DNA of 64,000 bases from NCBI RefSeq assembly GCF_003030345.1, contig NZ_CP028158.1, positions 4,154,001 through 4,218,000 of the forward strand, in the 5' to 3' direction. The stretch is from Plantactinospora sp. BC1. Lineage in GTDB: Bacteria; Actinomycetota; Actinomycetes; Mycobacteriales; Micromonosporaceae. Below the pieces are notes generated by a model. That model was given only the letters and a program-made list of their open reading frames with translations. It made no database searches and was not told the DNA's origin. Made by a program: the position numbers and the translations under genes. Positions 30,493 to 32,758 of the stretch are shown piece by piece (position 1 is the stretch's first letter; every line of letters starts with the position of its first letter).

Positions 30493-31254
30493 TCAGCGGG
30501 TGGCGGCGGCGACGAAGATCGGGAGGGCGACCAGCAGCCGGGCGGTGGCGGCCCGACGGGTCTGCTCGGCGATCCACGCCTCGGCCTGCTCGGCGCTGAC
30601 GGCACCGGTCTGCCGGGCGGCGTCGGCGTGCCCGGCAAGCATGGGTCGCATCGCGGCGTCGGTGAACACCAGGGTGTGCACCTCGACCTCGACGTCGTGG
30701 AAACCGCTGTCGAGCAGCAGGTTGCGGTAGGCACGGGCGATGCGCGGGTGCGGCACGGTGTCGGCGCGGGCGTGCACGATGCGGCGGGTCAGCTCGGGCT
30801 GGTCGGAGTCGATGACCAGGGTGTCCCAGTCCTGGCCGAGCAGCACGATCCGACCGCCGGGGGCGAGGACCCGGCGGGCCTCGGCCAGCGCGGCGGACGG
30901 GTCGGGCAGCACGTGGTACACCTTGTCGGCCCGGTACCCGTGGGCCTGCCCGTCCGGCAGCGGCAGCTCGGCGGCGTCCGCGGCGCGTACGTCGAGGTCG
31001 GGGAACCGGCTGCGGGCCGCGGCCAGCATCGCCGGGTCGAGGTCCACCCCGATCGCGCGGGCGCCCTGACGGGCGAGTTCGGCGACGGCACGACCGGCGC
31101 CGCAGCCGACGTCGAGCACCGTCGCGCCGGGGTACGGCCGTAGCAACTCGTAGCTGCGGGCGCGTAGCGTTACGGCGTCGGGCGTGTTCTCGGCGGCGTC
31201 GAGCAGGCGGATCAGGTTTTCGGTGTCCGTGTAGGCGGTGTGCGTCTCTGGCAT
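30493..31254 (-). CDS. Class I SAM-dependent methyltransferase
   Basis: A 253-residue methyltransferase. Motif I is VLDVGCGAGRAVAELARQGA, with the acidic end of strand 2 in AIGVDLDPAMLAAARSR. Motif post-I is DVRAADAAELPLPDG. Motif III is ARRVLAPGGRIVLLGQD. UbiE/Cyp-type enzymes of this layout methylate small molecules; the substrate is unknown. It starts at ATG 31254 with the -10 element ending only 7 nt upstream, so the mRNA is leaderless or nearly so. It is divergent from a MerR gene whose operator sits inside this gene's promoter, so MerR probably induces it on ligand binding. Confidence 0.9.
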   Translation of the reverse strand: MPETHTAYTDTENLIRLLDAAENTPDAVTLRARSYELLRPYPGATVLDVGCGAGRAVAELARQGARAIGVDLDPAMLAAARSRFPDLDVRAADAAELPLPDGQAHGYRADKVYHVLPDPSAALAEARRVLAPGGRIVLLGQDWDTLVIDSDQPELTRRIVHARADTVPHPRIARAYRNLLLDSGFHDVEVEVHTLVFTDAAMRPMLAGHADAARQTGAVSAEQAEAWIAEQTRRAATARLLVALPIFVAAATR

Positions 31255-31333: not shown

Positions 31334-31750
31334 ATGGAGTACTCGATCGGGGAGCTGGCGGCCCGTTTCGGTCTGGCCACGCACGTACTCCGGCACTGGG
31401 AGGACGCGGGTCTGCTGTCACCGGCACGGCGGGTGGCGGGCCGGCGGACGTACGGCGCGGTGCACGTGACCCGGGTGGCGGAGATCCTGCTGGGCAAGGA
31501 GGCCGGGTTCAGCCTGGAGCAGTTGCGGGAGCTGTTCGCCGCCCCCGATCGGGAACGGCGGCAGGATCTGCTGCGTGACCAGTTGGTCCAGGTGCGGGAG
31601 CGGATCGCCCGGCTCACCCTGTCGCAGACGCTGTTGGAGCACGGACTGCGCTGCCGGCACCCGGACTACCAGGCGTGCCCACGGTTCCAGGAGATGGTCC
31701 TAGGGCGGCTGGACGGGGTCGACCTGGCGGAGGCACTGGACCACGACTGA
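31334..31750 (+). CDS. MerR-family regulator
   Basis: A 138-residue MerR protein. The winged HTH reads MEYSIGELAARFGLATHVLR, then HWEDAGLLSPARRVAGRRTY and EILLGKEAGFSLEQLRELFA. A dimerisation coiled coil (LLRDQLVQVRERIARLTLS) follows. The C-terminal tail has two Cys (LRCRHPDYQACPRF), a possible metal or thiol sensor. It is divergent from the methyltransferase and lies across the dyad promoter at 31262-31292. The effector is unknown; the Cys pair and short C-terminus argue against a large drug-binding domain. Confidence 0.92.
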   Translation: MEYSIGELAARFGLATHVLRHWEDAGLLSPARRVAGRRTYGAVHVTRVAEILLGKEAGFSLEQLRELFAAPDRERRQDLLRDQLVQVRERIARLTLSQTLLEHGLRCRHPDYQACPRFQEMVLGRLDGVDLAEALDHD

Positions 31751-31785: not shown

Positions 31786-32493
31786 TCAGCCGGTGATGAG
31801 GGTGGCGACGGCACCGCCCGAGGTGACCGTACGCCCGGTCGTGCGCTGGTAACGCCGGACCAGGTCGTGCCCGCGTGACCGCTGGCCGATCCGGCGTTCG
31901 GCGCGCAGCAGCGGGTTGCGCGGCGGTGGCGGGAAGGTGTCGGCCAGCTCCGCGAGCAGGGCCGGGGTCCGCACCCCGGCGGTGTTCAGCACCCAGGCCG
32001 CGCCGGGGTCGAGGGCGACGAGGACGAGGGCGAGATGTTCGTGCCGGTGTTCGCGGTCCCGGCGGGCGAGCGCGAGCCGGAGTGACGCCTCGTAGGCCGC
32101 CTGGGCGTCGAGCCCGAGGGGCGGGTTCGTCCGGGCGCAGCGCCGTCGTGCCGCGACGGCTCCGAGCGGCAGCAGCGGCTCGGGTGCGGTCGGCCGGTCC
32201 AGGACGGCCGGGGTCAGCCGCGACAGGATCTGCGTGACGTCGATGCCGAGCGGTGCCAGGGTGTCGCGGTCGGCGGCGGCCCCGGCGCCGAGCGGCGCGG
32301 CCCGGCGTACCGCTTCCCGGATGGTCGGCTCCGTGCCGCCGTGCCGGCCGAGGATGGTACCGACGACTCCGCCCGTCGCGGTGAGGGCGAGCAGGAGATG
32401 CTCGCTGCCGGTCCGGGGATGGCCGAGGTCACGGGCCACGGCCAGGGCGTGCGCCACCGTACGGCGGAGGTCGGGGTGATCGCCTCGGAACAT
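31786..32493 (-). CDS. Stand-alone Clp-N (ClpC N-terminal-like) repeat protein
   Basis: A 235-residue protein with two Clp-N-like repeats. Repeat 1 (about 3-75) reads LRRTVAHALAVARDLGHPRT, GSEHLLLALTATGGVVGTIL. Repeat 2 (about 125-195) reads LDAQAAYEASLRLALARRDR, EHRHEHLALVLVALDPGAAW. A basic tail ends the protein. There are no Walker motifs, so it is an adaptor, decoy or sensor, not an unfoldase. The Clp-N domain is where ClpC takes substrates and where cyclomarin, ecumicin and rufomycin bind. It overlaps the HTH gene by one base (TGATG). Together they resemble a split mycobacterial ClpC2, which fuses an HTH-like segment to such a domain. Confidence 0.85.
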   Translation of the reverse strand: MFRGDHPDLRRTVAHALAVARDLGHPRTGSEHLLLALTATGGVVGTILGRHGGTEPTIREAVRRAAPLGAGAAADRDTLAPLGIDVTQILSRLTPAVLDRPTAPEPLLPLGAVAARRRCARTNPPLGLDAQAAYEASLRLALARRDREHRHEHLALVLVALDPGAAWVLNTAGVRTPALLAELADTFPPPPRNPLLRAERRIGQRSRGHDLVRRYQRTTGRTVTSGGAVATLITG

Positions 32494-32711
32494 CAGACCT
32501 CCTGGTCGCGATGGTGTTTCCGGTGCACGGTCTGCTTGGTGACGCCGAGCCGGACGGCGATCTCCTGCCAGGACCAGCCGGCCCGTCGGGCCGCCGCGAC
32601 CTGCTCGGCCTCCAGTTGCTCCACGAGGCGGCGGAGGCGGGCGACCGCCCGCAGCGCGGCGTCGGGGTCGCTGCCGTGTGCGGCACGGTCGAGGTCGGCG
32701 ATCGCGGACAT
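32493..32711 (-). CDS. Small HTH protein coupled to the Clp-N gene
   Basis: A 72-residue protein. The N-terminal helix pair (ALRAVARLRRLVEQLEAEQV) looks like a dimerisation coil. The C-terminal HTH is GWSWQEIAVRLGVTKQTVHR. This layout resembles the N-terminal part of mycobacterial ClpC2. The ATG follows the -10 element by 6 nt, so the message is leaderless. Two palindromes overlap its promoter, so it probably represses itself and the coupled Clp-N gene. Confidence 0.88.
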   Translation of the reverse strand: MSAIADLDRAAHGSDPDAALRAVARLRRLVEQLEAEQVAAARRAGWSWQEIAVRLGVTKQTVHRKHHRDQEV

Positions 32712-32713
32712 GG

Positions 32714-32758
32714 CGTCAGCATATGCTGACGACGACGGGTCGTCAACATATGCTGACG
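32714..32758 (-). promoter_or_regulatory. Leaderless promoter embedded in two palindromic operators
   Basis: CGTCAGCATATGCTGACG (32714-32731) is a perfect 18-bp palindrome. CGTCAACATATGCTGACG (32741-32758) is the same site with one changed base, with centres 27 bp apart. On the minus strand -35 TTGACG (32746-32741) falls in the second palindrome. After a 17-nt spacer, -10 TATGCT (32723-32718) falls in the first. Position +1 is the A of ATG 32711. Confidence 0.88.

What the first reader, a model, noticed from the sequence alone, without database searches (positions are those of the whole stretch)
31786..32758. Split ClpC2-like module: autoregulated HTH protein coupled to a stand-alone ClpC-NTD-like protein
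Seen: a 72-aa HTH gene and a 235-aa gene with two Clp-N repeats and no ATPase overlap by one base. Known: the Clp-N domain of ClpC is the target of cyclomarin, ecumicin and rufomycin; mycobacterial ClpC2 (Rv2667) has an HTH-like N-terminus and a ClpC1-NTD-like domain, protects against such compounds and is induced by them. Inferred: here the same two functions are separate proteins, so the pair could sense ligands of ClpC or act as a decoy that soaks them up. In an antibiotic-producing family this would be a self-protection or proteostasis switch.
Basis: partly seen in the sequence, partly recalled or inferred. Interest (0 to 1): 0.88.

Follow-up and report, generated by a model that had tools for sequence, protein, structure and literature searches.

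The report
Self-repressing DNA-binder paired with Clp sensor
A soil actinobacterium carries a two-gene switch, a small DNA-binding repressor plus a free-standing copy of the substrate-gripping domain of the ClpC protein-destroying machine; it resembles a known mycobacterial defence against ClpC-targeting antibiotics but is built from two proteins and seems to read its own, rewritten DNA address.

Summary
On the minus strand a 72-aa HTH protein and a 235-aa Clp_N protein without ATPase overlap by one base. Two 18-bp palindromes directly upstream coincide with the -35 and -10 boxes of a predicted leaderless promoter.

It is not a ClpC2 broken in two. The same genome also holds a fused ClpC2, a canonical HTH/Clp_N pair, and an orphan Clp_N gene, each behind a similar tandem operator. 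HTH/Clp_N pairs are widespread in Actinomycetota; my capped searches found no description in print. The HTH is homologous to the N-terminus of ClpC2 and the operators share the half-site type, so the pair probably works like ClpC2. But its Clp_N domain forms a separate clade.

The window copy belongs to a rare clade (12 of 200 family genomes; one has a frameshifted Clp_N), under purifying selection. Its operator changed mostly to GTCAGC together with its recognition helix (QAVHKK to QTVHRK), which may insulate it from its paralogue. Leu replaces the cyclomarin-contact Phe80 in 11 of 12, so the cyclomarin/rufomycin reading is weak for this copy.

Best reading: an autorepressing stress or toxin switch with Clp_N as sensor and effector. 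Repression, contact between the two proteins, and the ligand are inferred, not shown.

The parts
32493..32711 (-). 72-aa HTH protein, predicted autorepressor
   Evidence: ORF; Pfam HTH_23/Sigma70_r4_2; predicted four helices, pLDDT 91.8; family alignment from exact references
32502..32537 (-). recognition helix (residues 59-70) of the HTH, within VTKQTVHRKH
   Evidence: predicted helix 59-70; 12 of 12 clade members TKQTVHRK[YH], 98 of 98 canonical loci [ST][KR]Q[AG]VH[KQ]K
31786..32493 (-). 235-aa stand-alone double Clp_N protein, no ATPase
   Evidence: ORF; Pfam Clp_N; model and Foldseek
32344..32475 (-). first Clp_N repeat (residues 7-50)
   Evidence: Pfam 16-64; model helices
31981..32112 (-). 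second, diverged Clp_N repeat (residues 128-171); the F80-equivalent L126 lies just before it, the E89-equivalent is E135
   Evidence: model; alignment A2 and residue mapping
31837..31914 (-). basic C-terminal helix (residues 194-219) with no counterpart in the aligned canonical Clp_N partners
   Evidence: model, lower confidence here (block means 59-75); motif N.[LI]LR[AI][ED]R in 11 of 12 clade members, lost in the frameshifted L234; gaps in the canonical rows
32714..32731 (.). proximal operator, perfect 18-bp palindrome, overlaps -10
32741..32758 (.). distal operator, imperfect 18-bp palindrome, overlaps -35; 27 bp from the proximal one
32718..32723 (-). predicted -10 box TATGCT, six bases before ATG (leaderless)
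32741..32746 (-). predicted -35 box TTGACG, 17-bp spacer to the -10 box

Best explanation
The locus is an autorepressing two-gene switch. A dimer of the HTH protein sits on each of two palindromes that coincide with the -35 and -10 boxes, and so blocks the leaderless promoter of its own operon (inferred from anatomy and from homology to ClpC2, for which self-repression was measured). The Clp_N protein, whose start overlaps the HTH stop, is a free copy of the ClpC substrate- and ligand-gripping domain. When it is occupied by unfolded protein, or by a toxin, peptide or phage protein aimed at ClpC, it stops supporting, or actively releases, the HTH protein from DNA; the operon fires and Clp_N accumulates as a sponge or holdase that shields ClpC (inferred, by analogy with ClpC2). 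The window copy is a paralogue with rewritten operator and recognition helix, so that it can fire independently of the canonical pair and of ClpC2 in the same cell, and its altered ligand site suggests a different signal.
For: Operator/promoter layout in 12 of 12 clade members and 90 of 98 canonical loci, against means of 0.0 and 0.02 in mononucleotide shuffles. In the own genome the only four tandem operators all stand before Clp_N genes: window pair, canonical pair, fused ClpC2, orphan Clp_N. HTH homologous to the ClpC2 N-terminus. ClpC2 self-repression, two operators, a promoter taken as leaderless, and lifting by ligand are published (PMC10030653, sections 10, 11, 13). Operator and recognition helix differ together between clades. 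Purifying selection. The orphan Clp_N gene behind canonical operators but without an HTH gene suggests that Clp_N is the effector and an HTH acts in trans.
Against: No evidence of HTH-Clp_N contact; the fused ClpC2 is a parallel lineage, not the same pair joined, so the fusion argument is indirect. F80 is lost in 11 of 12. The module is dispensable: 12 of 200 family genomes have it, one of these with a frameshifted Clp_N, and one same-genus genome keeps only a Clp_N remnant. Foldseek found no significant PDB match for the HTH model (best E 0.96; 8ADA not among the 50 rows shown). In other genomes 11 of 43 tandem-operator sites that I examined have neither gene next to them. The operator/helix link is not strict: the clade's distal operator keeps one GTCAAC half-site, and two HTH relatives with a quite different helix (L284, L285) also sit behind mixed GTCAGC/GTCAAC sites.
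Confidence: 0.6

Rival explanations
1. CtsR-like control by turnover: the HTH protein is an unstable repressor degraded by ClpC-ClpP; Clp_N does not touch the HTH on DNA but competes with ClpC for it or for adaptors, so stress that occupies ClpC changes HTH levels.
For: Clp_N is the docking domain of ClpC; self-repressing HTH genes next to Clp parts are known from CtsR-ClpC operons (both recalled, no call). The one-base overlap suggests matched synthesis.
Against: In fused ClpC2 ligand binding weakens DNA binding directly in vitro (PMC10030653 section 11). No degradation signal was looked for.
Confidence: 0.15
2. Clp_N is a ClpT-like or adaptor-like modulator that binds the ClpC-ClpP machine itself and tunes its substrate choice; the HTH merely keeps its level low.
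For: The Clp_N model also matches plant ClpT1 and ClpT2 and MecA-bound ClpC N-domains at Foldseek probability 1.00.
Against: Those matches are fold-level and no better than the ClpC1 matches; ClpC2 was shown to act as a ligand sponge.
Confidence: 0.12
3. Literal first-reader version (a special case of the best explanation): self-protection against cyclomarin, ecumicin or rufomycin type compounds.
For: F2 and E89 equivalents kept in 12 of 12; ClpC2 precedent.
Against: F80 is Leu in 11 of 12, whereas aligned canonical partners keep F80 in 36 of 37 rows; in M. tuberculosis ecumicin and ilamycin do not trigger ClpC2 (PMC12913811 passages). I did not search the window or genome for a biosynthetic cluster.
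Confidence: 0.1
4. Toxin-antitoxin-like pair: the HTH protein is the antitoxin-type autorepressor and Clp_N jams ClpC.
For: HTH gene first, one-base overlap, operators at the promoter; the best PDB sequence match of the HTH profile is the antitoxin RelI (E 9e-6, 6.2e-5); the own genome also has a protein with a sub-threshold CcdA-like N-terminus fused to Clp_N.
Against: M. smegmatis with the repression-defective R188A/R192A ClpC2 showed no growth defect in rich medium; an orphan Clp_N gene exists without an HTH gene.
Confidence: 0.05

Closest known systems
ClpC2 (Rv2667 and actinobacterial orthologues)
   Same: N-terminal HTH homologous to the 72-aa protein; Clp_N domain in the C-terminal part; tandem operators with GTCAAC half-sites before the start
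   Different: One polypeptide; operator spacer of 5 instead of 4; Clp_N in a separate clade; F80 contact published as conserved
Canonical split HTH/Clp_N pair (78 aa + 194 aa at G000:C1:6523987 in the own genome; 79 of 80 named loci, contig end in the other). I found no name for it in print
   Same: Same gene order, one-base overlap in most, tandem operator, promoter layout, HTH 50-59% identical to the window's in 30 aligned loci
   Different: GTCAAC operator with QAVHKK-type helix; keeps MFERFT-type start and F80; no basic C-terminal helix in the aligned rows
RelI antitoxin of RelS-RelI
   Same: HTH with partial similarity to ClpC2, reported in PMC13284704 (passages) and found here by profile
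   Different: Partner is a ribonuclease toxin, not Clp_N
ClpC1 N-terminal domain; plant ClpT1/ClpT2
   Same: Double Clp_N fold, Foldseek probability 1.00
   Different: ClpC1 has AAA+ domains; ClpT has no HTH operon (recalled)

Membership tests
ClpC2 | HTH and Clp_N in one polypeptide | tested here: not met
   two ORFs overlapping by one base
ClpC2 | Clp_N domain inside the ClpC2 clade | tested here: not met
   window clade 100/100 in both trees, ClpC2 clade 99/94 and 100/98, separate
ClpC2 | operator CGTCAAC-n5-GTTGACG in tandem | tested here: not met
   tandem and same half-site type, but n4 and mostly GTCAGC
ClpC2 | cyclomarin-contact residues F2, F80, E89 | tested here: not met
   F2 and E89 12 of 12; F80 in 1 of 12, not the window copy
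ClpC2 | self-repression lifted by ligand | not testable with these tools
   needs gel shift and reporter assays
Split HTH/Clp_N operon family (defined here) | HTH of this family directly followed by a Clp_N protein | tested here: met
Split HTH/Clp_N operon family (defined here) | tandem palindromes 27-28 bp apart, ending 2-4 nt before the start codon | tested here: met
   window: spacing 27, 3 nt; clade 12 of 12. Canonical loci: both operators at 10 or more of 12 matches in 96 of 98; spacing 27-28 in 94 of 98; end 2-4 nt before the start in 95 of 98
Toxin-antitoxin pair | second protein toxic without the first | not testable with these tools
   needs expression in cells

The most novel reading that the evidence does not exclude
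Actinobacteria carry a modular set of HTH/Clp_N proteotoxicity or ClpC-attack sensors that run in parallel in one cell without cross-talk, because operator half-site and recognition helix are rewritten together (GTCAAC with QA.HKK; GTCAGC with QT.HRK in two clades; GTCAGT with QS.HAK at one locus). The window module is one such orthogonal channel, with a retuned ligand site and an added basic tail for a signal other than cyclomarin. The same comparison places the DNA-reading part of ClpC2 in its N-terminal HTH, whose recognition helix is missing from the solved fragment, rather than in the ClpC1-like domain proposed in print.
Probability: 0.4. Interest if true: 0.78.

Novelty: new variant of a known kind. 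Interest (0 to 1): 0.63.

Why it matters
ClpC is a target of several natural antibiotics. A widespread split form of the ClpC2 switch makes the DNA-reading and ligand-reading steps separable in the test tube, gives a ready assay for natural ligands of Clp_N domains in actinobacteria, and offers a small natural operator/helix code for insulated repressors. It also makes a published uncertainty testable: which part of ClpC2 reads its operator.

Tried and rejected
Rejected: 'ClpC2 split in two' (separate Clp_N clade; intact fused ClpC2 in the same genome). Rejected: tandem operators being unique to Clp_N genes in general. That holds in the own genome (4 of 4). Elsewhere the tandem pattern occurs in 51 of 61 family genomes (reversed control 0 in all 61); I examined 43 sites (46 less three duplicates: L283, L293 and the second L289 match). 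The tool chose 30 loci and I chose 17, partly for odd operators, so the share is not representative. 32 sites have the HTH and/or Clp_N next to them and 11 have neither. Rejected as support: a shared neighbourhood. Only the two same-genus loci share the window's flanks; weak methyltransferase matches near three loci are not a conserved link.

Inconclusive: Foldseek of the HTH model (no match below E 0.96). The 8ADA profile match is E 0.001 with A1 but only 0.029 with A3, built from exact references. One origin for the two GTCAGC clades is neither shown nor rejected (p-AU 0.208), so the helix/operator change may be one or two events. Literature: no description of the split pair in the listings of searches, which cover open-licence PMC papers only; two searches matched 213 and 110 papers and showed 12 each, and I opened passages of only three papers. 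In Streptomyces papers 'ClpC2' means a full Clp ATPase (abstract start), a different protein.

Full report
WHAT IS THERE. On the minus strand, a 72-aa HTH gene (32493-32711) and a 235-aa gene (31786-32493) share one base. Pfam finds HTH families just over threshold in the first and one Clp_N repeat (E 1.1e-10) in the second. AlphaFold models give four helices for the HTH (pLDDT 91.8; helices 2-11, 16-43, 48-55, 59-70). For the larger protein they give two Clp_N repeats, a linker and a less certain C-terminal helix (pLDDT 83.3). Foldseek matches the latter to ClpC1, ClpC2 and ClpT domains with probability 1.00, best E 2.4e-4; the HTH model has no significant match (best E 0.96).

PROMOTER AND OPERATORS. 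Two palindromes, 32714-32731 and 32741-32758, lie 27 bp apart. On the minus strand they contain TATGCT, six bases before the ATG, and TTGACG, 17 bp further up: a predicted leaderless promoter covered by both operators. The same layout is found in 12 of 12 members of the window clade and 90 of 98 canonical loci (18 from family genomes, 80 named); shuffled upstream regions gave means of 0.0 and 0.02. The two canonical loci that failed the tandem-operator test (L027, L037) look like wrongly chosen start codons; I kept them as misses.

A FAMILY, NOT A SINGLETON. The window HTH finds a match in 177 of 200 family genomes at E<=0.001, weak ones included. The window Clp_N finds one in 104 of 200, a number that includes N-domains of full-length Clp ATPases. 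I take the family to be Micromonosporaceae, because a G089 contig has the length and the HTH match of a named Dactylosporangium record. Profile A1 finds the HTH in 265 of 394 class genomes, weak matches to fused ClpC2 included. Of the 80 best named loci kept from a capped genome-collection scan (567 relatives confirmed), 71 have a Clp_N start recognised by script; eight more start with close variants seen by eye (VAVFERFT, MIAERFT or MIGERFT types); one contig ends. Of these, 37 plus the window protein were aligned, and all 38 match Pfam Clp_N. Genera include Streptomyces, Micromonospora, Amycolatopsis, Lentzea, Saccharothrix and Rhodococcus.

FOUR TANDEM OPERATORS IN ONE GENOME. The pattern GTCARC-N4/5-GYTGAC has 30 sites in the own genome (reversed control 5). 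Only four pairs lie 27-28 bp apart, and all four precede Clp_N genes: the window pair; the canonical pair at 6.524 Mb; a 253-aa fused ClpC2 at 0.695 Mb (spacer 5); and an orphan 190-aa Clp_N gene at 0.513 Mb with no HTH gene between operator and start. The N-terminus of this ClpC2 is found in 165 of 200 family genomes at E<=0.001, 144 of them below 1e-10 by my count. Of the 12 genomes with the window clade, seven have such a ClpC2 match below 1e-10 and five only weak ones.

KINSHIP WITH ClpC2. From 20 genomes of the window's order, picked from those already matched, 18 fused proteins were fetched (open frames 239-286 aa, two longer). All 18 carry the HTH at E 1.4e-8 to 8.2e-7 with the profile from exact references, and all have GTCAAC-N5-GTTGAC upstream, two copies in 16 and one in 2. 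Taylor et al. (PMC10030653; sections 10, 11, 13 and passages read) showed that ClpC2 represses its own promoter through CGTCAAC-n5-GTTGACG sites and that cyclomarin lifts this. They solved residues 4-72 as a dimeric four-helix fragment with a D46-R57 salt bridge, and proposed DNA binding by the C-terminal domain.

A POINT ABOUT ClpC2. In three mycobacterial orthologues residues 46 and 57 are D and R, as in the paper. R57 is the first Arg of an ARR.G.SW motif; the aligned Arg is invariant in the HTH family. The 8ADA chain ends at V72 of ...DIGKSMGV, and in the orthologues the next residues are TKQAAQKRF, which align with the recognition helix. The published dependence of high-affinity binding on the N-terminal part (R57A and C-terminal-domain variants) fits this. 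Against it, R185A/R189A in the C-terminal domain also weakens binding. An HTH region in ClpC2 was already noted in PMC13284704 (passages), so that alone is not new.

THE WINDOW CLADE. Twelve of 200 family genomes have the close form, one (G052, L234) with a frameshifted Clp_N; a thirteenth, same-genus genome (G058) keeps only a Clp_N remnant at the same place. One other same-genus genome (G113) shares the flanks; the loci of other genera do not. In Clp_N trees the clade has support 100/100 on a long stem; ClpC2 is a separate clade, next to ClpC1 in the first tree (the frameshifted L234 row was left out, so 11 rows; the CcdA-like fusion was dropped from the second tree). In 12 of 12 the proximal operator is GTCAGCATATGCTGAC and the distal one GTCAGC....GTTGAC, so three of four half-sites are GTCAGC; the helix reads TKQTVHRK[YH]. 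Among 388 canonical half-sites, GTCAAC occurs 329 times, GTCAAT 48 and GTCAGC once; the helix reads [ST][KR]Q[AG]VH[KQ]K in 98 of 98. The 80 named loci were found partly by a helix pattern that allowed A or T and K or R at the two key positions and ranked by likeness to a canonical HTH, so their helices are not an unbiased sample; their operators were not selected.

OTHER REWRITTEN PAIRS. A second clade (five loci from G047, G006, G022, G067, G098) pairs GTCAGC with RRQTAHRK; in G067 and G098 only one such operator was seen in the 60 bases shown. One locus (G044) pairs mixed GTCAGT/GTCAAC half-sites with SRQSIHAK. One common origin of the two GTCAGC clades is not rejected (p-AU 0.208), so this is one or two events, not many. 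Against a strict code, L284 and L285 have mixed GTCAGC/GTCAAC operators with quite different helices (STREVRRR, TTTEVRRR) and no Clp_N match.

LIGAND SITE. Mapping on the alignment: F2 is kept in 12 of 12 and E89 in 12 of 12; F80 is Leu in 11 of 12. Among 37 canonical rows F2 is kept in 37, F80 in 36 and E89 in 31. The clade also has a basic C-terminal stretch with no counterpart in the canonical rows. PMC12913811 (passages) reports that ecumicin and ilamycin bind ClpC2 but do not trigger it.

MECHANISM. Shown: gene structure, operator/promoter coincidence, conservation, homology. Strongly inferred: the HTH protein binds these palindromes and represses its own operon. Weakly inferred: Clp_N controls the HTH protein by contact. 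Unknown: the signal. I favour a sensor-and-sponge switch for misfolded protein or ClpC-directed attack, insulated from its sister switches by its altered DNA address.

NOVELTY. No description of the split pair was found in the searches listed under Tried and rejected, which cover open-licence papers only. I rate it a new variant of the ClpC2 kind.

Noticed in passing
L076 / G000:C1:512.5-513.3 kb: Orphan 190-aa Clp_N gene behind two canonical operators (start codon some 55-60 nt downstream) with no HTH gene between, a likely trans target of the canonical HTH.
   Followed up: partly
L075 884-1657 (-) / G000:C1:7.040 Mb: 257-aa protein with a sub-threshold CcdA-like N-terminus (21.2 against a cut-off of 22.4 bits) fused to two Clp_N repeats, preceded by a 144-aa protein weakly matching the HTH profile; no tandem operator in the stretch.
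   Followed up: partly
L252, L259-L261, L270, L290-L294, L297: In other family genomes canonical tandem operators stand 2-41 bases before genes for DUF998-like membrane proteins, FAD-binding oxygenase-like proteins and alpha/beta hydrolases; one of each type was checked with Pfam, the others by eye. Possible detoxification regulon.
   Followed up: partly
L271, L272, L298: HTH genes with tandem operators but no Clp_N match downstream in the stretch held.
   Followed up: no
L284, L285: HTH relatives with a different helix (STREVRRR, TTTEVRRR) behind mixed GTCAGC/GTCAAC operators and no Clp_N match.
   Followed up: no
L241 5358-5690: Same-genus genome G058 with only the C-terminal half of the window Clp_N gene left between the same flanking genes: a decaying copy.
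   Followed up: partly
window 31334-31750 (+): MerR-family regulator convergent with the Clp_N gene, and a methyltransferase at 30493-31254 (-); not conserved next to the pair in other genera.
   Followed up: partly
HTH profiles A1 and A3 vs PDB 9sdc: RelI antitoxin is the best PDB sequence match of this HTH family, tying a toxin-antitoxin regulator to the ClpC2 HTH.
   Followed up: partly
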